Source: a bacterium
GTDB taxonomy: Bacteria; UBP15; UBA6099; DSWB01
Direction: 5' to 3'
DNA: 13,031 nucleotides
Assembly (NCBI GenBank): GCA_020061125.1
Contig: JAGUYV010000087.1
Coordinates: forward strand, 1 to 13,031
Part shown: piece by piece, positions 1-13,031 of the stretch
Position numbering within the stretch: the first letter of the stretch is position 1
How the letters are laid out: each line of letters begins with the position of its first letter
Made by a program: the position numbers and the translations under genes
Notes under the pieces: model-generated
What the model was told of the DNA's origin: nothing
Databases searched by the model: none
The model's input: only the letters and a program-made list of their open reading frames with translations

Positions 1-207
1 GAAGCCTGGCGAAAACATCAGAAAAAACACATTGGCGTTGGTGTCGAGCAGGGGTTCGAGAAACCGCGGCGAGTATGCATGGTACAGCATGTCCGCGTTC
101 ATTCCCGGCATGGGCATGGCGCGCCGCATTACGGCAAGAAGCGCCGGGCCACCCGGATAGTACAGCGGCCGGAATCCAGCGTGCCCATATCGTTGGCTTT
201 GAATCAT
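1..207 (-). CDS. 5' part of an unrecognised protein gene, cut by the window edge
   Basis: An open frame reads leftward from an ATG at 207-205 and is still open at base 1, giving 69 codons. The protein begins MIQSQRYGHAGFRPLYYPGG and goes on with a Met-rich stretch (residues about 27-40), then PRFLEPLLDTNANVFFLMF. Codon use is GC-rich at third positions, as in the neighbouring genes, which argues that it is real. The start was chosen because it lies about 30 nt downstream of the transcription start predicted from the TATAAT at 244-249. An AAAGG sits 12 nt upstream, so ribosome binding looks weak. A perfect inverted repeat (208-220) abuts the start codon. I do not recognise the family and no signal peptide is evident. 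The overlapping plus-strand frame from base 75 is judged spurious. The gene is transcribed divergently from the secreted-protein gene at 369. Confidence 0.55.
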   Translation of the reverse strand, partial: MIQSQRYGHAGFRPLYYPGGPALLAVMRRAMPMPGMNADMLYHAYSPRFLEPLLDTNANVFFLMFSPGF

Positions 208-220
208 GCGGACTGTCCGC
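208..220. repeat. Perfect 6-bp inverted repeat next to a start codon
   Basis: GCGGAC-T-GTCCGC is a perfect inverted repeat with a single central base, directly upstream of the ATG at 207 of the partial minus-strand gene. It lies between the weak Shine-Dalgarno and the start codon. It could be a protein-binding site or a small RNA structure; with 6-bp arms chance is not excluded. Confidence 0.3.
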
Positions 221-243
221 CTTTCCCGTGCGGCATGGCCTGT

Positions 244-252
244 ATTATAGCA
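244..252 (-). promoter_or_regulatory. Extended -10 promoter for the left-edge gene
   Basis: On the minus strand the sequence is TGCTATAAT, a consensus extended -10 element (TG-N-TATAAT). At the normal -35 distance (about 267-272) there is only GC-rich sequence, and extended -10 promoters can work without a good -35. The predicted transcription start near 237 gives a leader of about 30 nt before the ATG at 207. Confidence 0.45.
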
Positions 253-290
253 GGGCGCGCGGCGCTCGCGGCGCGCATGGACCGTGCGCC

Positions 291-319
291 TTGAACATTT
301 TGTCCATTAATGGTAAAAA
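291..319 (+). promoter_or_regulatory. Weak candidate promoter with embedded palindrome
   Basis: TTGAAC (291-296) and TAAAAA (314-319) are 17 bp apart, a poor match to sigma70 hexamers but the best candidate seen upstream of the gene at 369. The spacer contains a perfect 10-bp palindrome, CCATTAATGG (304-313), which could be an operator half or chance. This is the only AT-rich stretch in the 161-bp divergent region between 207 and 369; the bases 253-280 are extremely GC-rich (GCGCGC twice). Confidence 0.25.
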
Positions 320-368
320 AAGGTACTGGCACGCTGCTGAAACATACCGCCGGACAGGGGAGCAAGCC

Positions 369-1184
369 ATGAGAATGCGCGGCCTGATGGGGATTACGAT
401 GATACTGGCGCTGTGCGCGGCGCCGTGCGCGGCCTCGCCGCAAACCCTGGGCTTTCCCGTGCTGGATTCCACGGTCAACATGCTTTCCCCGGATGTGTAC
501 ATTGCGCCGGGGCTGACCACGGGCGCGGATTATGTAAATTACAACGCCGTGGCCCGGGTTGCGGACGCGGGAACAAGCGCGGACGCCGAGAGCGGCGGCG
601 CCTGGGCCATCGTGGGCATGGGCACCGTGTCCGTGGGCTACAAGCGCATGGTCACGCAGGCCACGCTGCACCAGCCGTCATATTCGGGCAGCAACACCTA
701 CGATGCCGATGTGTACACCGTCAAATGGGCGCCGGGAAAGCGCATCAAAATGCTTCCCGCAAACGGGCAGCTCACCCTCGGCTCCGTTCTCTATTTCGAG
801 CGCACCCACCACAACGATTACAATTTCCAGCAGCATTTCGCCGCGCTCGGGTTCGATTTCGGCGAGGTGCGCATCAAGGGCGGTTACAACTGGACCGAAG
901 GGCTGCTTTCCGGCAACCAGGGGGCATTCGCTTCGTTCCAGTGGGAATTGGTTGATAACTGGCTTCTTTTCGCGGATTACAGCAGAAAAGATTTCAATAA
1001 ACTCGTGATCAACGACCTGCTTCTTCCCCGCCTTGGCTTTGATTGCAGCCGGTGCCCGGACGACGCCACCAGCGTGGGCCTGTCCGCACGGCTCGACAAC
1101 AACATCTTCGCCACTGCGGGCATGTACGACACCAACGATGTCGAGGCCTTCATGGGCAGCCTCTCCATGAAATGGACGCATTGA
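369..1184 (+). CDS. Secreted, probably outer-membrane beta-barrel-type protein of unknown function
   Basis: The predicted 271-residue protein starts with a signal peptide: basic MRMRG, a hydrophobic core (about residues 6-17) and a likely signal peptidase I cut after the PCAA near residue 22. The mature part is rich in aromatic and alternating polar/apolar stretches, such as AIVGMGTVSVGYKRM (80-94), LTLGSVLYFERTHH (135-148) and VRIKGGYNWTEG (167-178). It ends in a strand-like segment, GSLSMKWTH. This is what amphipathic strands of an outer-membrane barrel look like, but the family is not recognised. A C-x-x-C pair occurs at about residues 226-229. The ATG at 369 was chosen because GGGGAG lies about 7 nt upstream and the signal peptide follows at once. 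The same frame extends upstream to base 75, but that part lacks protein-like character and overlaps the minus-strand gene. The gene converges on the acyl-CoA synthetase, 85 bp away. Confidence 0.7.
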   Translation: MRMRGLMGITMILALCAAPCAASPQTLGFPVLDSTVNMLSPDVYIAPGLTTGADYVNYNAVARVADAGTSADAESGGAWAIVGMGTVSVGYKRMVTQATLHQPSYSGSNTYDADVYTVKWAPGKRIKMLPANGQLTLGSVLYFERTHHNDYNFQQHFAALGFDFGEVRIKGGYNWTEGLLSGNQGAFASFQWELVDNWLLFADYSRKDFNKLVINDLLLPRLGFDCSRCPDDATSVGLSARLDNNIFATAGMYDTNDVEAFMGSLSMKWTH

Positions 1185-1212
1185 TTTCCTGAAGAGAACA
1201 CATTGGAGCAAG

Positions 1213-1241
1213 AAAAAAGCGCGGCCATGAAGGCCGCGCTT
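1213..1241 (-). terminator. Intrinsic terminator of the acyl-CoA synthetase gene
   Basis: AAGCGCGGCC (1217-1226) and GGCCGCGCTT (1232-1241) form a perfect 10-bp stem with a 5-nt loop. On the minus strand the stem runs into a T tract (complement of A at 1213-1218), so the site terminates transcription from the right. On the plus strand the stem is followed by only TT, so termination of the 369-1184 gene is probably weaker. It lies 29 bp beyond the minus-strand stop codon. Confidence 0.8.
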
Positions 1242-1269
1242 GATGATGCGTGCGGAATTGCGTGCGCTG

Positions 1270-3360
1270 TTACCGTGCGGAAATGACCATGCGCGCGTCC
1301 GCGGCGGCCATGCTCTCCCCGTCCGCGGGCACGAGCAGGGGGTTGATGTCCAGTTCGCGGATGCGCGGGCAGCTTGTGACCAGGGACGACAGCTTGAGCA
1401 GCAGTTCCACCAGTTTCTCCCTGTTGGCCGCAGCCATGCCCCGGAATTCGCCCAGAATGTTTTTGGCCCTGATTCCGTCGAGCATGTCCAGCGCGTCGTT
1501 CCGGGTCAGGGGCGCGATGCGCATGGTGATGTCCCTGAACGCTTCCACGAAAATGCCGCCCACACCGAAAACCACCACGGGGCCGAACTGTTCGTTGGTG
1601 TTGACGCCGAGCAGCAATTCGCGCGCGTTGGAAACCATCTTCTGGATGGTTACGCCGCGGATGGCGGCGTCTGGAAATTTCGCTTTTGCGCTGGCCGTTA
1701 TTGAGGCGAATGCTTCGCGCACCTGGACCTGGTTTTGAAGATTCAGCGCCACGCCGCCCGCCTCGGTCTTGTGCAGAATGTCCGGTGAGTCAATTTTTAG
1801 CACCACGGGGAACCCGAGGTCGGCGGCAACTGCGGCGGCTGCGTCCGCATCCGCGGCGCATTTGTCTTCAATCATTGGAACGCCGATGCATTTGAGGATG
1901 TCCGCGGCTTCGGAAGTCAACTCGGTGCGGTCCTGATCCAGTGCGTTGTCAATAATCTCCTGCACGGCCGGGCGGTCAAACTCGATGAGTTCTGGCTCGT
2001 CCGCGCGCCGCGCCACGAATTCGTGGTGCCAGCGCAGCATGGCCAGGGCCTGAATGGCCTGCTCCGGGGATTCAAAGATCGGGAAATCGTTGTTCGACCG
2101 GATGCGGTTGATGTCGTTTGCATTTCCGGCCACGCACAGGGCGATGGGTTTTTTGAAATCGTGCATCAGCTTTTTCATCATCGGGAAAATGTTGCCGATG
2201 GTTCCGCCGGGAATGTTGTCGAGGAAAATGAAGCTCAACATGAGCGCGTCTATGGTGGGCTCCTGGAGCAGGCGCAGCACGATGGTGGCGTACATTTCGA
2301 AGTCGAACATGTCGCCCAGGTCCATGGGATTTTGGAGCTTGATGACGCCCGCGCGCACATGTTTCTCCACATCTTCCACGAGCTTCTGCGGGAAAGCGGG
2401 CAGTTCGAGGCCCAGGCGTTCGCACTCATCGGCGCAGATCACGGCGTGACCGCCTGTGGGCGTGATCACGGCCACCCGGTTTCCCTTCATGGGCGGCATT
2501 TTGAACGCGTTGGCGGCCACGGCCATTTCAAGCAGCCCGTGCGCGCGCACCACGCCCACCTGGCGCATGGCTGCGTCCACCACGGCGTCGTCGTTGGCCA
2601 CCGCGGCCGTGTGCGACGCCGCCATTTTCGCGCCGCTCGCCGTGGTGTTGGCCTTGTACACAATCACCGGCTTGGTGGTTTTGCGCACCGCGTCCATGAA
2701 CCGGCGGCCCCGCTCGATTTCCTCGAGGTACAGGCACATCATTTTCGTGCTCTCGTCGGTTTCCAGAAATTCGATGATGTCGCCTTCGTCCACATTGAGC
2801 TTGTTTCCGAGGCTCACATATTTGTTGATGCCGATGGAATTGCCCGTGAAATTGTTGATGAGGCTCAAGCCCACGCCGCCGGACTGGGTCATGAGCGCCA
2901 CCGGGCCGGTGGGGAACCGACTCATGCGCACGAAGGGCAGGCACATGCCGTTGTCCTGGTTGATGACCCCGAGGCAGTTGGGGCCGATGAACCGGATGCC
3001 GTAGCGTTCCGCGATGCCCGCGACCTGGTTTTCGAGTCCTTTGCGGTCCGCGCTGAATTCGCTGAACCCGCCGCTCGAAATGATGGCGCGGCGCACGCCT
3101 TTCTGCCCGCACTCCTCGAGCAGCGGCGGAATGGTCTGCGCGGGGATCAGGAAAATGGCCGACTCCACGGTGCCGGGCACATTCATGATGCTGGTGTGGA
3201 TGGGAAGGCCGTATACCTGTCCTGGCTTCTGCCCGATGGCGTAGATTTCCCCTTCAAAATGGAAGTCTATGAGGTTCTTGACGATCGAGCGGCCGAAGTT
3301 GGTCTTGGATTCGCTCACCCCGAACACGGCGATGCTTTTTGGGAAAAACAATGTTTTCAT
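1270..3360 (-). CDS. Acyl-CoA (acetyl-CoA) synthetase, ADP-forming, fused alpha-beta chain
   Basis: This 696-residue protein has the domain order of single-chain NDP-forming acyl-CoA synthetases, which convert acyl-CoA, ADP and phosphate to acid, CoA and ATP. First comes a CoA-binding Rossmann domain (SIAVFGVS near residue 9, GPNCLGVINQ near 126). A succinyl-CoA-ligase-like region follows, with the candidate phospho-histidine in AASHTAA (His250). Next is a CoA-ligase-like middle with ITPTGGHAVI (about 299), then a C-terminal ATP-grasp domain (PVVLKIDSPDILHKTEAGGV, about 518-537; LDINPLL near 670). No GNAT domain is attached, so it is not the fused protein acetyltransferase type. The start at 3360 (MKTLFFPKS) was preferred over an upstream in-frame ATG at 3414 because family proteins begin with this segment and AAAGG lies about 10 nt upstream. 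The gene is monocistronic, with its own promoter and terminator. Substrate (acetate or another acyl group) cannot be told from sequence. Confidence 0.9.
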   Translation of the reverse strand: MKTLFFPKSIAVFGVSESKTNFGRSIVKNLIDFHFEGEIYAIGQKPGQVYGLPIHTSIMNVPGTVESAIFLIPAQTIPPLLEECGQKGVRRAIISSGGFSEFSADRKGLENQVAGIAERYGIRFIGPNCLGVINQDNGMCLPFVRMSRFPTGPVALMTQSGGVGLSLINNFTGNSIGINKYVSLGNKLNVDEGDIIEFLETDESTKMMCLYLEEIERGRRFMDAVRKTTKPVIVYKANTTASGAKMAASHTAAVANDDAVVDAAMRQVGVVRAHGLLEMAVAANAFKMPPMKGNRVAVITPTGGHAVICADECERLGLELPAFPQKLVEDVEKHVRAGVIKLQNPMDLGDMFDFEMYATIVLRLLQEPTIDALMLSFIFLDNIPGGTIGNIFPMMKKLMHDFKKPIALCVAGNANDINRIRSNNDFPIFESPEQAIQALAMLRWHHEFVARRADEPELIEFDRPAVQEIIDNALDQDRTELTSEAADILKCIGVPMIEDKCAADADAAAAVAADLGFPVVLKIDSPDILHKTEAGGVALNLQNQVQVREAFASITASAKAKFPDAAIRGVTIQKMVSNARELLLGVNTNEQFGPVVVFGVGGIFVEAFRDITMRIAPLTRNDALDMLDGIRAKNILGEFRGMAAANREKLVELLLKLSSLVTSCPRIRELDINPLLVPADGESMAAADARMVISAR

Positions 3361-3418
3361 TGAAAAGAGCCTTTCAGTAAATTTCCAAGCGCCTGCTGTG
3401 GGAGCAAAGCGCACTCAT

Positions 3419-3448
3419 TTTATAGGAACACTCGTTACCGTGTTTCAA
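3419..3448 (-). promoter_or_regulatory. Promoter of the acyl-CoA synthetase gene
   Basis: Reading the minus strand, TTGAAA (complement of 3443-3448) and TATAAA (complement of 3419-3424) are 18 bp apart, a good sigma70-type promoter about 60 nt before the start codon. The spacer contains a short inverted repeat AACAC-N8-GTGTT. The -35 reads ACTTGAAA, also a match to the heat-shock sigma32 -35, but the -10 (TTCCTATAAAAT) fits sigma70 better. Confidence 0.55.
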
Positions 3449-3526
3449 GTGATTTTAGCATAAGCGCGGCGCGGCGGATGCGCTATCGAAGTTTTTTCAT
3501 GCGAAATTCCACCCTATGGAAGCAAA

Positions 3527-3571
3527 TATCGCAAACCATGAACAAACCCGGGTCCGGCCGTGTTTGCGATA
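3527..3571. repeat. Perfect 10-bp inverted repeat upstream of Hsp20-lon
   Basis: TATCGCAAAC (3527-3536) and GTTTGCGATA (3562-3571) are exact inverse complements separated by 25 bp. The repeat lies about 60 bp upstream of the predicted Hsp20 -10 element, a position suited to an activator or repressor of the heat-shock operon. It does not match CIRCE. It could instead be the stem of a transcript-level structure, since a GC-rich stem and T6 follow. Confidence 0.5.
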
Positions 3572-3632
3572 AGCGGATTTGCGCCGCCGTCTTTTTTAGG
3601 TTTACGACATGCAAATCCCCGGCGCAAAGCCA

Positions 3633-3638
3633 TATAAT
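3633..3638 (+). promoter_or_regulatory. Candidate -10 element of the Hsp20-lon operon
   Basis: TATAAT at 3633-3638 is a perfect -10 hexamer, giving a leader of about 30 nt before the Hsp20 start at 3676. The -35 at the proper distance (TGCAAA, 3610-3615, 17-bp spacer) matches only three of six bases, so activation or a different sigma factor is possible. Confidence 0.4.
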
Positions 3639-3675
3639 TATGAATTACAAGTCAAAGCAAACGGGTGAGCATACT

Positions 3676-4086
3676 ATGCTGATTATTCGGAAACAGTGCA
3701 TCCACAAAGGGACCGGCGAAGGCGAGTGCCTTCAGCGCATGGTCAATGAATTCATGCAGATCGGGCCGCCGCTCTCTATGCTCGATGTGCGCATGGTTCC
3801 CAAATGCGACATTTACGAGACCCAGGACGCGGTGCTGATTTTCATCGAATTGCCGGGTGTCGAGGAGCAGGACATCCAGATCGCCTTCGACATCGAGCAC
3901 AATGTGATCGCCATTTACGGCCGCCGCGAAAACCCCATGGGCGAGACGCGCAAGCGCATTCTCCAAAAGGAAACCGTGACCGGTCCGTTCGAGAAAATGC
4001 TCAAGATCAACATCCCCGTGGATACGGAAGGCGTCACCGCCAAACTGAACAACGGCATGCTCAAAATCGAGTTGCCCAAGGCGTGA
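3676..4086 (+). CDS. Small heat shock protein, Hsp20/alpha-crystallin family
   Basis: The 136-residue protein is an ATP-independent chaperone that holds unfolding proteins. The alpha-crystallin domain runs from about residue 43 (CDIYETQDAVLIFIELPGV) to the end, with the typical GPFEKMLKINIPVD (103-116) and the NNGMLKIELPKA signature (125-136). It stops right after this signature, so the usual C-terminal I-x-I/V tail that docks neighbouring dimers is missing. The N-terminal arm is short and includes Cys8 and Cys18. The ATG at 3676 was chosen for the GGTGAG about 8 nt upstream; upstream in-frame starts (3640, 3478) lack a ribosome site. The stop lies 45 bp before lon on the same strand, so the two are probably co-transcribed as a protein-quality-control unit. 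Confidence 0.88.
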   Translation: MLIIRKQCIHKGTGEGECLQRMVNEFMQIGPPLSMLDVRMVPKCDIYETQDAVLIFIELPGVEEQDIQIAFDIEHNVIAIYGRRENPMGETRKRILQKETVTGPFEKMLKINIPVDTEGVTAKLNNGMLKIELPKA

Positions 4087-4131
4087 CGAAACGCCGCTCC
4101 TTCAATCCATCTTTCATGCGAGGTCGCCGCA

Positions 4132-6639
<2,508 letters not shown>

Positions 6640-6668
6640 CCGCCCATGCGTTTCACGCTTCCAGGTAT

Positions 6669-6685
6669 GATTTGAAAATCAAATC
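6669..6685. repeat. Short inverted repeat after lon
   Basis: GATTTGA-AAA-TCAAATC is a perfect 7-bp inverted repeat with a 3-base centre, 30 bp after the lon stop and 22 bp before the next start. It is AT-rich and has no T run, so it is unlikely to be an intrinsic terminator. It may be an operator or an RNA-processing structure in the lon-6707 spacer. Confidence 0.35.
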
Positions 6686-6706
6686 CACACATCCGCCGTT
6701 GGCATT

Positions 6707-7090
6707 ATGACTGATTTCGAACACATCAATCTTGAAGGCCCCGACGCGCAGACCGTGATTCAGCACACGCATGAGCCTATGGGCGCGGGGCGCGCCTGCA
6801 CCGTCGAGATCGTCCCCGGACCGCGCGGCCTGGACCATGACCGGGGCAACGCCGATGTCGTGATCACTTTCGACGATGGTGAGCGGCGAACCGCAACCTT
6901 CATGACCATCGCCAATTTGACACGGCTGATTGATGAAAAGAACCCCGCATCCCCCCACGACGCCTATGTGTGGGCCACGAACCTCGTTGTGGTCAAGTCC
7001 CTTGAACCTGAAACCGTTCTGGAAACGATTCGCGCCATGATGAGGCGCGGCGAAATTTCCCTGGTGTTCGGAACTCCGCCCGAGTTGTGA
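6707..7090 (+). CDS. Hypothetical 127-residue protein
   Basis: I do not recognise this family. The protein is soluble and has no signal peptide or membrane segment. An acidic, beta-like N-terminal half (ADVVITFDDGERRTATFMTI, about 49-68) is followed by DAYVWATNLVVVKSLEPETV and a helical C-terminus (ETIRAMMRRG). The alternation suggests a small alpha/beta fold. Composition and codon use resemble the neighbours, supporting a real gene. It starts 67 bp after lon in the same direction, so it may be read through from the Hsp20-lon promoter. No clear Shine-Dalgarno precedes the ATG at 6707, the main weakness of the call. It ends 107 bp before the biotin carboxylase gene. Confidence 0.65.
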   Translation: MTDFEHINLEGPDAQTVIQHTHEPMGAGRACTVEIVPGPRGLDHDRGNADVVITFDDGERRTATFMTIANLTRLIDEKNPASPHDAYVWATNLVVVKSLEPETVLETIRAMMRRGEISLVFGTPPEL

Positions 7091-7103
7091 ACGGCCAGTC
7101 GCG

Positions 7104-7133
7104 ATGACCCGCGCATCACCTGACGCTTATACT
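7104..7133 (+). promoter_or_regulatory. Candidate promoter of the biotin carboxylase gene
   Basis: ATGACC (7104-7109) and TATACT (7128-7133) are 18 bp apart, a moderate sigma70 match, giving a leader of about 60 nt before the ATG at 7198. Confidence 0.35.
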
Positions 7134-7154
7134 ATGTTTGTTGTTTTCATAAGC
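7125..7154. repeat. Inverted repeat overlapping the -10 of the biotin carboxylase promoter
   Basis: GCTTAT (7125-7130) and ATAAGC (7149-7154) are exact inverse complements 18 bp apart, and the left arm overlaps the predicted -10 at 7128-7133. A second small pair, ATACT/AGTAT, is offset inside and beyond it. The placement over the transcription start suits a repressor site; the arms are short, so chance is possible. Confidence 0.3.
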
Positions 7155-7197
7155 AGTATGACAGTCGAAATCCCAGACCATATTGAGGAGACCGCCA

Positions 7198-8670
<1,473 letters not shown>

Positions 8671-8695
8671 TGCAGGCGCTTGAGCAAGTGTGAGA

Positions 8696-9505
8696 TCAGC
8701 GCTTTGAGCATTCGAAGAAATGGAGCTGGCCCAGGGGCGCGAAGCGCAGCGCCCCGTCCAGTGCGCGGAGCGCGCGCGCCGCAGGTTCCGGCGACAGCAA
8801 TTTCTTTTCCAGCGCCTTGGCAGGTCCTATGAAATAGGGGATGTACGGGAAGATGTAAACCGGCTGCTGATACTCTACGGCGAACCCCTGCAATGTGATG
8901 ATTTTCTCCCATGCCGACGGCGGCAGTTTCTGGAGGTGCGTGTTGATGCCGTTGCGGAAACGGGATGTCACGCCTGCACGATGCAAAGCGCGGCCCGCGG
9001 CGTGGAACATGCCGGTGCGGCCTTCAAGGGAATCCAGACAGAAAAGGTTCGGGACGGTGATCAGAAGGCGCGCGCCGGGCGCGAGCGCGCGGCGCAACTC
9101 GGCCAGCGCGCGGTCAGGATCAGCCAGGTGCTCGATGGTTTCGCTGCACACGGCGCATTGCAGCGTTTGATCTCCGAAGGGCAGGGCGCGTATGTCTCCC
9201 GCGATGAACGCCGGATTATCCGTACCTTGCGATGGGGGATTCAGATCCAGTCCGTAACACTTTGATCCGGGATGCCGTTCGGCAAACATTCCTGCGAGGA
9301 CGCCGCCGCCGCATCCCGCGTCCAGAAGCGAGTCCGGCGCGATGCGTTCGAGGCGTTCAAGGATAAGAGCCGTGCGCTGTGCGTTGAGCGGGTCGGACAG
9401 AAATTCCGTTTTGGCCTGCCGCCAGGGCGCGCCGTGGAATGAGCGGTAGAAATGCTCGAGGGCGCGCGGGTCGCGGGAATCTCCGTCAAAGGTCACGGGC
9501 GCCAT
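8696..9505 (-). CDS. Class I SAM-dependent methyltransferase
   Basis: The 269-residue protein has the SAM-binding motif I (LLDAGCGGGVLAGMF, 60-74) and an acidic residue at the end of strand 2 (YGLDLNP, 84-90). It also has GDIRALPFGD (103-112) and the post-motif CSETIEHLADPDRALAELRR (120-139), typical of Methyltransf_11-type small-molecule methyltransferases. The C-terminal part has a hydrophobic, aromatic patch (QQPVYIFPYIPYFIGPAK, 213-230), perhaps a membrane-near or lipid-linked acceptor site. The ATG at 9505 has a strong GAGGGGAG 6 nt upstream. It overlaps the end of the aminotransferase gene by 20 bp, which implies translational coupling and a shared pathway. It is the last gene of the minus-strand operon. 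The acceptor is unknown; sugar or lipid modification is an inference from context. Confidence 0.85.
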   Translation of the reverse strand: MAPVTFDGDSRDPRALEHFYRSFHGAPWRQAKTEFLSDPLNAQRTALILERLERIAPDSLLDAGCGGGVLAGMFAERHPGSKCYGLDLNPPSQGTDNPAFIAGDIRALPFGDQTLQCAVCSETIEHLADPDRALAELRRALAPGARLLITVPNLFCLDSLEGRTGMFHAAGRALHRAGVTSRFRNGINTHLQKLPPSAWEKIITLQGFAVEYQQPVYIFPYIPYFIGPAKALEKKLLSPEPAARALRALDGALRFAPLGQLHFFECSKR

Positions 9506-10682
9506 GCAGCGCTCCCCTCTGTTCGAGGTACGCCCGGAGGCGGCGCATGCCTTCCTCGATGTTATCCAGGGAATTGGCGTAGCAGAAGCGGATGAAACCC
9601 TCGCCGTTGGCGCCGAAATCAATGCCCGGCGTGCACGCGACCCTGGCCTTTTCCAGAATGTCCAGGGCCAGGCGCAGCGAGTCTCCATCCACATGCCGGA
9701 AATTCACGAACACATAAAAAGCGCCCGTAGGCTCGACCGGAGGCTTGAGGCCCATGCGGTCCAGTGCGGAGAGCATGGCCACGCGGCGCTCGTTGTAGAT
9801 GGAGGCCATTTTCGCCGTGTGTTCCGCGCATTCGCGCAGCGCGCTGATGGCGGCCCATTGCACGAAGGCGTTGGCCGAGATGCTGAAATTCTGATGCAGT
9901 TTCTGCATGGTGCGGATGTAGCGTTTGGGCGCGATGAGGTAGCCCACGCGCCACCCGGTCATGGCGTACAGCTTGGAAAACCCATTGATCACGAAGGCGT
10001 TGTCCGTGAATTCCAGGGCCGAATGCGCGTTGCCGTTGTAGTCCAGCCCGTGATAGATTTCGTCGGACACCAGGGGCACGCCAAGGCCCGCGAGCTTTTC
10101 CAGAGTGGGGCTGGGAATCACCGTGCCGCCGGGATTGGAGGGCGAGTTGCACAGGATGGCGCGCGTGCGCGGGTTGACGGCTTCCGCCACGGCGTCCGCG
10201 TCGTACTGGAACCCGAGTTGCTCGGACACGGGCACGAAGCGCGGCACGCCGTCGGCGAATAGAACGAAGTTGGGATAGCACGCATAATGCGGGTCGGTCA
10301 TGATCACTTCGTCGCCCGGGCTGACCAGTGTGTTGAAGATCATGCCCAGGGCCGGGCTTGTTCCGTTGGAGATAATGATCTGGTCCGGGGAAATGTCCAC
10401 GCCGTACTTGTCGAGATAGTGTTCCGCGATGGCGTAGCGCAGTTCGAGCAGGCCCATGCTGTGTGTGTAGTGCGTACGGCCGTCACGCAGGGCGCGGATC
10501 GCAGCCTCGACCACGGGCGCGGGGGTGTCGAAATCCGGCTCGCCGACTTCGAGGTGGATGATGTGCTCGCCGCGCCGCTCCATGTCCTGGGCCTGTTCCA
10601 TGACATCCATGACGATGAAAGGCTTTACGGCGTCCGCCTTGCTGCTGATGGGAAAGTTGTCAAAAGGTTCCTTGCCGGTCAT
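9486..10682 (-). CDS. PLP-dependent aminotransferase, class I/II (aspartate aminotransferase-like)
   Basis: This 398-residue protein belongs to fold-type I aminotransferases, which move amino groups between an amino acid and a 2-oxo acid using pyridoxal phosphate. Visible are the N-terminal LEVGEPDFDTP (44-54) and SNGTSPALG (105-113). PLP-binding elements are CNSPSNPGG (178-186, Asn183), SDEIYHGLDY (206-215, Asp207) and the lysine loop NGFSKLYAMTGWRVGY (233-248, Lys237). The substrate-carboxylate arginine is in GFIRFCYAN (Arg365). Length is normal for AspB-like enzymes. It is not of the DegT/DnrJ type usually used on nucleotide sugars, so its substrate is more likely an amino acid or keto acid. 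The start at 10682 has only a distant AAGGA (about 13 nt). It lies 43 bp after an epimerase gene and overlaps the methyltransferase gene. Confidence 0.92.
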   Translation of the reverse strand: MTGKEPFDNFPISSKADAVKPFIVMDVMEQAQDMERRGEHIIHLEVGEPDFDTPAPVVEAAIRALRDGRTHYTHSMGLLELRYAIAEHYLDKYGVDISPDQIIISNGTSPALGMIFNTLVSPGDEVIMTDPHYACYPNFVLFADGVPRFVPVSEQLGFQYDADAVAEAVNPRTRAILCNSPSNPGGTVIPSPTLEKLAGLGVPLVSDEIYHGLDYNGNAHSALEFTDNAFVINGFSKLYAMTGWRVGYLIAPKRYIRTMQKLHQNFSISANAFVQWAAISALRECAEHTAKMASIYNERRVAMLSALDRMGLKPPVEPTGAFYVFVNFRHVDGDSLRLALDILEKARVACTPGIDFGANGEGFIRFCYANSLDNIEEGMRRLRAYLEQRGALHGARDL

Positions 10683-10725
10683 TTTCGGTGTCTGTCCTTG
10701 GTGAGATGTCGTTTCGTGCGCGGGG

Positions 10726-11685
10726 TTACGCGCCGGGCGCGCTCTTGTTCACGGCCCAGCGCAGGGTGCGCTGCATGCCGTCGTCGAAGGGCACGCGGGG
10801 TTCCCAGCCCAGGTCCGTGCGCAGGCGCGAGATGTCCGCAGTCATGTGGCGCTGGTCGCCGGGGCGCTCTGGCAGGTAGCGGACCTCGTATGTTTCGCGG
10901 CTCTTGCCGAAGCAGTCCAAAGTTACATCCACAAGGCGGTTGATGGAAATGCTGCCGCCCGCGCCCACATTGTAAACCGTGCCGTACGATGCGGGGTTGT
11001 CCAGCGCGCGCAGCCACGCATCGGCCACATCGCCGATGTACACGAAATCGCGCGTCTGTTCGCCGTCGCTGAAAATCGTGATCGGCTCACCCTTGAGGAT
11101 GTTGGCCATGAAGATGGTGACCACGCCCTGATAGGGATTGTCCAGGCTCTGGCGCTCGCCGTACACATTAAACATTCGGAACGCGGTGACATGGAAATCA
11201 AAGTCCAGATCCACGCGCCCGGCTGTTGCGAACAGATAGCGCTCGGCAGCCTCCTTGGTGATGCCGTAATACGAAATGGGGCGCACCGGCTCGTCCTCGG
11301 TCACGGGCAGTTTCGCAGGAACGCCGTATGCGGTCATGGAACTGGCGTAGAGCACGCGCGTCACTCTGCGGCGGATGCACTCGTTCATGACATTGAGGGT
11401 GCCGGTGACATTGACTGAAAGATCCTCGGCGGGGTCGTCGAAGCTCACGATGGTGGACGCCTGTCCCGCGATGTGGAACACCGCTTCCACGCCTTTGTCG
11501 AAAGCCGCGGCCACGGCTCCGGGGTCGCGCACATCACCCTTCACGAACTCCGCGGCCGCGGGAACATTTTCCTCGAATCCCGTACACAGGTTGTCGAGGA
11601 TCACGACCCGGTGCCCGCGGGCCAGCAGATGGTCCGCCATGTGGCTGCCGATGAACCCGGCCCCGCCGGTGACAAGAATGGTCAC
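10726..11685 (-). CDS. NAD-dependent epimerase/dehydratase (UDP-glucose 4-epimerase-like)
   Basis: The 319-residue protein is an extended short-chain dehydrogenase acting on nucleotide sugars. It has the NAD-binding TILVTGGAGFIGSH (2-15), the acidic DNL (31-33) that selects NAD, and GDVRD (50-54). Active-site elements are YASSMTAYG (113-121, Ser115/116) and the YGITK (Tyr140, Lys144). The substrate-domain signature FRMFNVYGERQ (169-179) and RDFVYIGDVADA (212-223) follow. I chose a GTG start at 11685: AAGGGAGA precedes it by 9 nt and the dinucleotide fold begins at residue 2. Upstream in-frame residues overlap the neighbouring gene and lack homology-like character. The gap to the upstream epimerase stop is 22 bp. 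The exact sugar cannot be told; UDP-hexose 4-epimerase and related dehydratases are equally possible. Confidence 0.88.
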   Translation of the reverse strand: MTILVTGGAGFIGSHMADHLLARGHRVVILDNLCTGFEENVPAAAEFVKGDVRDPGAVAAAFDKGVEAVFHIAGQASTIVSFDDPAEDLSVNVTGTLNVMNECIRRRVTRVLYASSMTAYGVPAKLPVTEDEPVRPISYYGITKEAAERYLFATAGRVDLDFDFHVTAFRMFNVYGERQSLDNPYQGVVTIFMANILKGEPITIFSDGEQTRDFVYIGDVADAWLRALDNPASYGTVYNVGAGGSISINRLVDVTLDCFGKSRETYEVRYLPERPGDQRHMTADISRLRTDLGWEPRVPFDDGMQRTLRWAVNKSAPGA

Positions 11686-11707
11686 GCGCGAATGTCTCCC
11701 TTGCGCA

Positions 11708-12739
11708 TCAGAATATTTTCTGGAACAGTTTTTTGTTCTCCACGACCCAGTCGAAGAGTTTCTGCGCGCCCTGTTGCACGGAGGTGCGGGGTTTCCAGCC
11801 GAATTCGCGAGCGGCTTTCGACACATCGCATACGAACACGGGCTGGTCGCCGGGCCGCCAGTCCGCAAATGTGTAATCGAGTTTGCGTCCGAGCCGTTGT
11901 TCCAGAAACGAGATGAGTTCGAGCAGGGACATCTGGTTTCCCGCGCCGCCGCCGATGTTGTACACCCGGCCCGCGGTTTTGCCGATTTTCCGTTCCGCGG
12001 TCAGAAACGCATTCACCAGATCGTCTATGAAGAGCAGATCGCGCACTTGCTTGCCGTCCCCGTATACCGTGACCGGGCGGCCCAGCACGGATGCGATGAT
12101 GAACCAGGCCACCCAGCCCTGGTCCTCGACGCCGAACTGACGGTAGCCGTAAATGCACGACTGGCGGAACACGACGGTGCGCAGCCCGTAGATGCGGGAG
12201 TAATCGCGCACATACTGGTCGGCCGCGCCCTTGGAACATCCGTAGGGGGAATGGAAATCGAGCAGCCTGTCTTCGGAAATGCCCTGTGGATAATCTTTGT
12301 ACTGGTAGCGGCCTCCGCGCTCCACCACCGCAATGTCCTCCATGCCGCCGTACACTTTGTTGGTGGACGAGAACAGGATTACGGGGTCGCCGCCTGACAG
12401 GCGCACGGCTTCAAGCAGGTTGAATGTGCCAAGCGCGTTGATGTCGAAATCCTCGCGCGGATTCGAGACCGAAGTGGTCACGGCCACCTGGGCTGCAAGG
12501 TGCGCCACGGTGTCCACGCGCCCCGCGCGCCGCACGGCGTTTTGCACATCGTTGAAGTTGCGCAGGTCGCCGCGGATGAGCGTGAACCGGCCGCGCGTGC
12601 GCAGCCACCGCACATTCATGTCCGTTCCCTTGCGCGACAGATTGTCGAAGATCACGACTTCGTGGCCCTTGCCAATCAGCGCCGCGGCAAGATTGCAGCC
12701 GATGAATCCGGCGCCGCCGGTAATCAGATATCTGCTCAT
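11708..12739 (-). CDS. NAD-dependent epimerase, CDP-paratose 2-epimerase (tyvelose epimerase)-like
   Basis: The 343-residue extended SDR protein has YLITGGAGFIGCNL (4-17) and the segment FDNLSRKGTDMNVRWL (31-46), characteristic of the CDP-paratose 2-epimerase group. It has SSTNKVYGG (124-132) and the active-site HSPYGCSKGAADQYV (163-177; Tyr166, Lys170). Also present are RQSCIYGYRQFGVEDQGWVA (192-211) and VRDLLFIDDLVNAF (232-245). Known members invert C2 of CDP-paratose to give CDP-tyvelose for O-antigen, but many relatives of this subfamily have no proven substrate, and the CDP-sugar pathway genes are not in this window. The ATG at 12739 was chosen for GGGAG 10 nt upstream. It is the first gene of the four-gene operon, with a promoter and leader hairpin upstream. 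Confidence 0.88.
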   Translation of the reverse strand: MSRYLITGGAGFIGCNLAAALIGKGHEVVIFDNLSRKGTDMNVRWLRTRGRFTLIRGDLRNFNDVQNAVRRAGRVDTVAHLAAQVAVTTSVSNPREDFDINALGTFNLLEAVRLSGGDPVILFSSTNKVYGGMEDIAVVERGGRYQYKDYPQGISEDRLLDFHSPYGCSKGAADQYVRDYSRIYGLRTVVFRQSCIYGYRQFGVEDQGWVAWFIIASVLGRPVTVYGDGKQVRDLLFIDDLVNAFLTAERKIGKTAGRVYNIGGGAGNQMSLLELISFLEQRLGRKLDYTFADWRPGDQPVFVCDVSKAAREFGWKPRTSVQQGAQKLFDWVVENKKLFQKIF

Positions 12740-12774
12740 GGAAAACGGCTCCCGCGGACTGGATTCAGGGTCAT

Positions 12775-12796
12775 GAGCGCCGGATGCCCGGCGCTC
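12775..12796 (-). repeat. Leader hairpin upstream of the sugar operon
   Basis: GAGCGCCGG (12775-12783) and CCGGCGCTC (12788-12796) form a perfect 9-bp GC-rich stem with a 4-nt loop inside the predicted 5' leader of the minus-strand operon, 35 nt before the ATG at 12739. No T run follows on either strand, so it is not a classic terminator. It may stabilise the transcript or bind a regulator. Confidence 0.5.
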
Positions 12797-12821
12797 GCGG
12801 CCGCGTGTGTGCAACAGGACC

Positions 12822-12850
12822 ATTTTAGTTCAGGTGCAGGGCATTTTCAA
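12822..12850 (-). promoter_or_regulatory. Promoter of the epimerase-aminotransferase-methyltransferase operon
   Basis: On the minus strand TTGAAA (complement of 12845-12850) and TAAAAT (complement of 12822-12827) are separated by exactly 17 bp, a strong sigma70-type match (four and five of six bases). The predicted start near 12815 gives a leader of about 75 nt that contains the 12775-12796 hairpin. Confidence 0.6.
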
Positions 12851-12871
12851 CGCGCGGGCCCGCACAGAGGT

Positions 12872-12900
12872 TTGACGCGCGCTCGGGGATTCATTATAAA
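12872..12900 (+). promoter_or_regulatory. Promoter of the cobalamin riboswitch transcript
   Basis: TTGACG (12872-12877) and TATAAA (12895-12900) are separated by exactly 17 bp, each matching five of six consensus bases. It points rightward, about 7 bp ahead of the riboswitch, and is divergent from the sugar-operon promoter 22 bp away. Confidence 0.7.
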
Positions 12901-12906
12901 TCGTGC

Positions 12907-13031
12907 ATACGCGTTCGCGGTGCGGGTAACGGAACACGGTGCGATTCCGTGGCGGTCCCGCCGCTGTAACCGGGGACGCGGCGCTGCAAAAAGTGAGCCA
13001 CTGCGCGCGGGCCGGGCCGGCCGCAACGAGC
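12907..13031 (+). promoter_or_regulatory. Cobalamin (B12) riboswitch, 3' end outside the window
   Basis: The sequence carries the conserved core of adenosylcobalamin riboswitches in order: GGTGCGGGTAAC (12919-12930), GGAACACGGTGCGATTCC (12931-12948), GGTCCCGCCGCTGTAA (12954-12969) followed by CCGGGGACG, and GCCACTG (12997-13003). The closing B12-box strand (consensus near AGTCAGGAGACCTGCC) and the expression platform lie beyond the right edge. The element should repress a plus-strand gene just outside when cobalamin is plentiful, commonly a B12 uptake or biosynthesis gene or a B12-independent isozyme. Which one applies cannot be seen here. Confidence 0.88.

What the first reader, a model, noticed from the sequence alone, without database searches (positions are those of the whole stretch)
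1..13031. Complete absence of the tetranucleotide ACGT across 13 kb
I checked every CGT in the window by eye (well over a hundred, preceded by C, G or T) and none is preceded by A. At this base composition about 45-50 ACGT sites would be expected. The avoidance reaches into codon choice. In lon, all ten junctions of Asp/Asn/Tyr/His with Val that I located (Val at residues 64, 93, 195, 256, 317, 426, 486, 501, 660, 695) use the T-ending codon (GAT/AAT/TAT/CAT-GTN), although C-ending codons dominate these amino acids elsewhere. Minus-strand genes show the same as frequent CACATC/CACATT. The gap also spans intergenic DNA. Likely causes are a resident or past ACGT-specific restriction-modification system, or m5C methylation at ACGT with deamination to ATGT/ACAT. 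The signal is a genome-level trait visible without any such gene in the window.
Basis: partly seen in the sequence, partly recalled or inferred. Interest (0 to 1): 0.75.

Follow-up and report, generated by a model that had tools for sequence, protein, structure and literature searches.

The report
Bacterial genome purged of ACGT sites
This bacterium has removed almost every ACGT (and two other short restriction-type words) from its whole genome, the usual scar left by long-resident restriction enzymes; the gene responsible for the ACGT part is not yet pinned down.

Summary
It is a genome trait. A 335-kb sample of the 4.1-Mb draft genome holds 32 ACGT against 792 expected: 17 in prophage-like contigs, 6 in the 16S rRNA gene, 1 in a tRNA. 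Synonymous codon shuffling predicts 441 where 1 is found. Five sampled relatives of the same order have normal ACGT.

This is the pattern of long-lived Type II restriction-modification. Methyl-cytosine decay alone fails, because ACGT is also gone where deamination would change the protein.

The genome's only detected C5 methyltransferase sits in a three-gene cassette (methyltransferase, DUF4928 nuclease, Vsr) on another contig. It is the leading candidate, but its target could be RTCGAY or another word, so the assignment is unproven. The phenomenon is known in kind and unusually complete in degree.

The parts
1..13031 (.). Whole contig (C461 of the draft genome): no ACGT, no CTSAG, no RTCGAY; coding and intergenic alike
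4132..6639 (+). lon (endopeptidase La): ten D/N/Y/H-Val junctions all with T-ending codons, the synonymous footprint of ACGT avoidance
   Evidence: TIGR00763 966 bits; junctions checked
1270..3414 (-). Acyl-CoA synthetase (ADP-forming) family protein, minus-strand gene that also lacks ACGT
   Evidence: best NCBIfam NF045493 468 bits, below its cut-off
7183..8670 (+). Biotin carboxylase (AccC-like), lacks ACGT
   Evidence: NF006367 610 bits, over cut-off

Best explanation
The lineage carried, for a long time, a Type II restriction-modification system recognising ACGT. Occasional cutting of undermethylated ACGT sites, possibly helped by decay of methylated cytosine, selected against each site until about 1-4% remain. 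Most of the survivors lie in RNA genes, which cannot change, and in prophage-like DNA that arrived recently. Shown: the genome-wide purge, its synonymous footprint, its absence in five sampled order-level relatives, and the location of the exceptions. Inferred: that a restriction-modification system is the cause. Leading but unproven candidate for the gene (about 40%): the cassette on contig C128 with the genome's only detected C5 methyltransferase (C128:417-1544), a DUF4928 endonuclease (1463-2464) and a Vsr endonuclease (2464-2871).
For: Purge to about 1-4% of expectation genome-wide. Codon-shuffle 1 vs 441, in all three frames. Relatives G001 and G003-G006 at 0.89-0.99, with no DUF4928 in any of G001-G006. 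Exceptions: 6 in 16S rRNA and 1 in a tRNA, 17 in two prophage-like contigs with tail-tube, Mu-like gpT, phage amidase and related genes. The avoided words are palindromes of restriction type: ACGT, CTSAG, RTCGAY, GRGCYC, CAGCTG. Literature: only orthodox Type II systems cause such avoidance, it grows with residence time, and in genomes without R-M systems only 0.7% of sites are underrepresented (PMC4687349). Known ACGT systems are m5C: MaeII (PMC10113651) and Hpy99XI (PMC10423294). The cassette holds the only PF00145 hit in the genome; its MTase, REase and Vsr families were identified.
Against: No enzyme was shown to recognise ACGT. Of 27 other genomes with the same methyltransferase clade only one (G070) lacks ACGT; ratios are otherwise 0.58-1.20, not lower than in the divergent clade (P = 0.12) and not lower genome-wide than in non-carriers (P = 0.30). 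G070's closest relative G135 lacks ACGT but has neither the C5 methyltransferase nor DUF4928. G019 and G047 lack ACGT without any C5 methyltransferase. Cassette genes themselves do not particularly avoid ACGT. The genome is 79% complete, so another system may be missing from it.
Confidence: 0.8

Rival explanations
1. The ACGT purge is due to a different, lost or unassembled R-M system, while the C128 cassette cuts RTCGAY (or GRGCYC, as the EcoT38I-like fold might hint). The ACGT footprint is then a vestige.
For: RTCGAY is nearly absent in exactly the two cassette genomes that also lack ACGT (G000 11/200, G070 2/75) and not comparably low in the 26 other clade-A genomes, clade B or same-order non-carriers. 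G135 lacks ACGT without the cassette. The DUF4928 model resembles EcoT38I (Z 12.5, 272 residues), an enzyme of GRGCYC specificity (own knowledge). Vestigial avoidance is common (PMC4687349).
Against: GRGCYC avoidance is shared by relatives without the cassette (G003 7/79, G004 1/31, G006 1/16) and absent in G070, so it need not involve the cassette. G135 is also low in RTCGAY and TCGA overall. No other C5 methyltransferase is in the assembly.
Confidence: 0.45
2. No restriction selection: ACGT was methylated at C5 and simply decayed by deamination to ATGT/ACAT.
For: ACA is over-used for Thr before T (26% vs about 15% of non-ACG codons, P = 4e-7). ATGT and ACAT are in mild Markov excess, 1.16 and 1.11. 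Deamination dominates ACGT loss in H. pylori (PMC10423294).
Against: A|CGT junctions, where either deamination changes Arg, are 0 of 19 expected. ACT also rises before T, so much of the loss did not end in ACA. A Vsr gene, which would repair such lesions, sits beside the methyltransferase. CTSAG is purged equally, although known CTSAG methylases are apparently not m5C (PMC10745947).
Confidence: 0.08
3. Base composition, codon bias or an assembly artefact produces the gap.
For: CTAG is rare in many of the genomes sampled, showing that some tetramers are scarce without a known cause.
Against: Markov and codon-shuffle nulls predict hundreds of sites; TCGA, of the same composition, is common (1346 observed vs 905 expected in the sample). 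Codon choice has compensated (469 of 470 NAT before GT). ACGT is assembled intact in 16S and prophages.
Confidence: 0.01

Closest known systems
Recognition-site avoidance by long-resident orthodox Type II R-M systems (Rusinov et al. 2015, PMC4687349)
   Same: Short palindromic recognition-type words underrepresented genome-wide and lineage-specifically, also where the causal gene is not found
   Different: Near-total (1-4% left) for a 4-bp word in a 4-Mb genome, with CTSAG and RTCGAY purged to a similar degree at the same time
ACGT loss in Helicobacter pylori with M.Hpy99XI (PMC10423294)
   Same: Same word, underrepresented, mostly silent changes
   Different: In H. pylori the loss is mainly to ATGT/ACAT, 53-295 sites per Mb remain in the populations quoted, and density does not track the methyltransferase; here the loss is nearly complete and in all reading frames
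MaeII (A^CGT, m5C) of Methanococcus aeolicus (PMC10113651)
   Same: Recognition word; C5 class of methyltransferase
   Different: No sequence of the MaeII proteins could be compared here
EcoT38I restriction endonuclease (PDB 7edb, 7e8r)
   Same: Best structural match of the DUF4928 model, Z 12.5 over 272 residues
   Different: 11% identity, no match by sequence profile; specificity cannot be transferred

Membership tests
Orthodox Type II R-M system (C128 cassette) | C5 cytosine methyltransferase with PCQ, ENV and QSRxR motifs | tested here: met
   PF00145 144.7 bits; SFPCQDLSLAG, AENVVG, VPQSRKR visible in the translation
Orthodox Type II R-M system (C128 cassette) | Separate restriction endonuclease gene adjacent | tested here: inconclusive
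   DUF4928 181 bits and PADLOC REase_II 143.5 bits; model of a 62%-identical homologue aligns with EcoT38I, Z 12.5; no Foldseek hit below E 0.001; no catalytic test
Orthodox Type II R-M system (C128 cassette) | Accessory Vsr mismatch endonuclease | tested here: met
   PF03852 110.6 bits; conserved neighbour in many of the 80 related loci
ACGT-specific R-M system | Methylates and cuts ACGT | not testable with these tools
   No methylome or enzyme data; genomic correlation inconclusive
ACGT-specific R-M system | Host genome avoids ACGT | tested here: met
m5C-deamination-only loss | Loss confined to deamination products and reading frames where they are tolerated | tested here: not met
   A|CGT 0 of 19; Thr before T exits also to ACC/ACT

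The most novel reading that the evidence does not exclude
The C5-methyltransferase/DUF4928/Vsr cassette recognises ACGT or RTCGAY, and in two unrelated lineages it has, alone or together with a partner system, driven its word to near extinction. This would give the uncharacterised DUF4928 endonuclease family its first specificity, read from genome composition alone.
Probability: 0.4. Interest if true: 0.5.

Novelty: new member of a known kind. Interest (0 to 1): 0.38.

Why it matters
Near-complete purges are a written record of which restriction systems a lineage has lived with, and they survive even when the genes are missing from a draft genome. Here at least three words were erased at once. 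The exceptions (16S rRNA, prophage-like contigs) separate immutable DNA from recent arrivals, so ACGT density can serve as a marker of foreign DNA in this genome. The case also offers a testable target list for DUF4928, a widespread restriction family of unknown specificity.

Tried and rejected
(1) Correlation of the cassette with ACGT depletion: pooled ratio 0.94 over 80 carrier loci, no difference between methyltransferase clades or against non-carriers. (2) Self-avoidance inside cassette genes: not informative, general palindrome avoidance. (3) G070 as an independent witness: supportive at first (10 vs 341), weakened by G135, which lacks ACGT without the cassette, and by the shared RTCGAY purge. 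(4) N6/N4 methyltransferases of G000 (three PF01555 hits) as shared ACGT enzymes: only 26-42% partial matches to those of G070, no shared orthologue. (5) Plasmids carrying the cassette: normal ACGT, as expected for mobile DNA. (6) Literature on DUF4928: a single paper naming it next to Vsr and a C5 methyltransferase in a genomic island, without specificity. (7) DUF4928 sequence profile against PDB: no meaningful hit. (8) Relatives of G084 (ACGT ratio 0.58): G084 low among them but not outstanding.

Full report
Observation. The window is one whole contig (C461, 13,031 bases) of a draft genome of 4.12 Mb in 513 contigs, 79% complete (contig length). It holds no ACGT; the maximal-order Markov expectation is 33. 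The expected number was overestimated (33, not 45-50), but the conclusion stands.

Extent. Across 335 kb sampled from 43 contigs there are 32 ACGT against 792 expected. A composition-matched whole-genome pattern gives 9 RYACGTRY against 1080 for the reversed pattern. Of the 32 sites, 17 lie in two prophage-like contigs, L201 and L206 (phage tail tube, Mu-like gpT, phage tail S and amidase domains), 6 lie within the 16S rRNA gene of L208 at 6724-8298, and one lies in a tRNA of L004. So ACGT persists where DNA is immutable or looks newly arrived. Five relatives of the same order that could be sampled are normal (0.89-0.99), so the trait arose in this lineage.

Not codon bias. In 187 kb of predicted genes, synonymous codon shuffling predicts 441 ACGT (sd 13) and one is found; by frame 117, 304 and 19 are expected and 0, 1 and 0 observed. 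Asp/Asn/Tyr/His codons before GT end in T in 469 of 470 cases against 13-22% before other G-dinucleotides. Arg is never CGT after A, against 4-8% after other bases.

Selection or decay? Deamination of m5C would turn ACGT into ATGT or ACAT. For Thr before T, where ACG is missing, ACA makes up 26% of the other Thr codons against 13-18% elsewhere (odds ratio 2.06, P = 4e-7), so G-to-A exits are favoured; but ACT also rises and ACC still dominates. At A|CGT, deamination would replace Arg by Cys or His, yet these sites are gone too (0 of 19). Decay alone cannot do this; selection against the site can (the step from depletion to selection is inference).

ACGT is one of several. In the cleaned sample, CTSAG (4 of 479), RTCGAY (11 of 200), GRGCYC (16 of 353), CAGCTG (2 of 97), GTCGAC (0 of 41, part of RTCGAY), AAGCTT (3 of 41) and CTAG (12 of 112) are also strongly depleted. 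CTSAG and RTCGAY are, like ACGT, absent from the window (0/19 and 0/12). GRGCYC (in three of the five relatives) and CAGCTG are also low in relatives, hence older; ACGT, CTSAG, RTCGAY and AAGCTT are not low there. RTCGAY is a sharply bounded motif: the four RTCGAY contexts hold 0-6 sites each, the other twelve contexts of TCGA 60-219 each. The genome thus bears the marks of several restriction systems, current or past.

The candidate gene. The only PF00145 methyltransferase in the assembly is on contig C128, in an operon-like row: C5 methyltransferase 417-1544, DUF4928 protein 1463-2464 (annotated start overlaps the methyltransferase end), Vsr endonuclease 2464-2871. Its GC content is lower (0.46-0.54) than its surroundings. 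The same cassette occurs on plasmids and in many phyla. The methyltransferase falls into a closer clade (49-71% identity, 27 genomes followed up) and a distant one (32-42%). An AlphaFold model of a 62%-identical DUF4928 homologue (mean pLDDT 84) aligns best with restriction endonuclease EcoT38I (Z 12.5, 272 residues, 11% identity), with other restriction enzymes below it. Foldseek alone gave no significant hit, so this is supportive, not proof.

Does the cassette cut ACGT? For: it is the only C5 enzyme found, and the ACGT systems described in the papers read are m5C. An unrelated genome, G070, with the same cassette as its only C5 enzyme, also lacks ACGT (2 of 56). Against: 26 other close-clade carriers are normal to mildly depleted; the closest relative of G070 lacks ACGT without the cassette; two non-carriers without any C5 methyltransferase also lack ACGT; and G000 and G070 share a second purged word, RTCGAY, that no other sampled carrier lacks. 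Lack of depletion in a carrier may only mean recent arrival (PMC4687349), but the positive evidence is thin. I give about 40% to ACGT, 30% to RTCGAY and the rest to other words.

Verdict. The finding is real, genome-wide and strong. Its cause is most likely long residence of Type II restriction-modification (confidence 0.8), a known phenomenon (PMC4687349; for ACGT in H. pylori, PMC10423294). The degree, with at least three words erased together, is unusual but not a new kind of system.

Noticed in passing
window 1-13031: CTSAG is absent (0 of 19 expected) and nearly absent from the genome (4 of 479); it is a known Type II methyltransferase motif.
   Followed up: partly
window 1-13031: RTCGAY is absent (0 of 12 expected) and nearly absent from the genome, and also from the unrelated genome G070 that shares the cassette.
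   Followed up: partly
window 12894-13031, + strand: Cobalamin riboswitch (Rfam RF00174, 39.8 bits), cut off by the contig end.
   Followed up: no
L201 and L206 (contigs C259 and C8 of the genome): Prophage-like contigs that keep ACGT (17 sites) but contain no CTSAG or GTCGAC, as if these phages had already met the CTSAG and RTCGAY systems but not the ACGT one.
   Followed up: partly
L046, L050 (P. aeruginosa plasmids pNECK1 and p12NE515): C5 methyltransferase/DUF4928 gene pairs, with Vsr on pNECK1, sit on mobilizable or conjugative plasmids that also carry integron resistance genes; ACGT is normal on them.
   Followed up: no
G019 (L171) and G047 (L170): Low-GC genomes with ACGT nearly absent (3/64, 0/12) and no C5 methyltransferase detected; what removes ACGT there is unknown.
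   Followed up: partly
G135 (L223-L228): TCGA as a whole is depleted (25 of 85) along with ACGT (2 of 24), with no PF00145 or DUF4928 found.
   Followed up: partly
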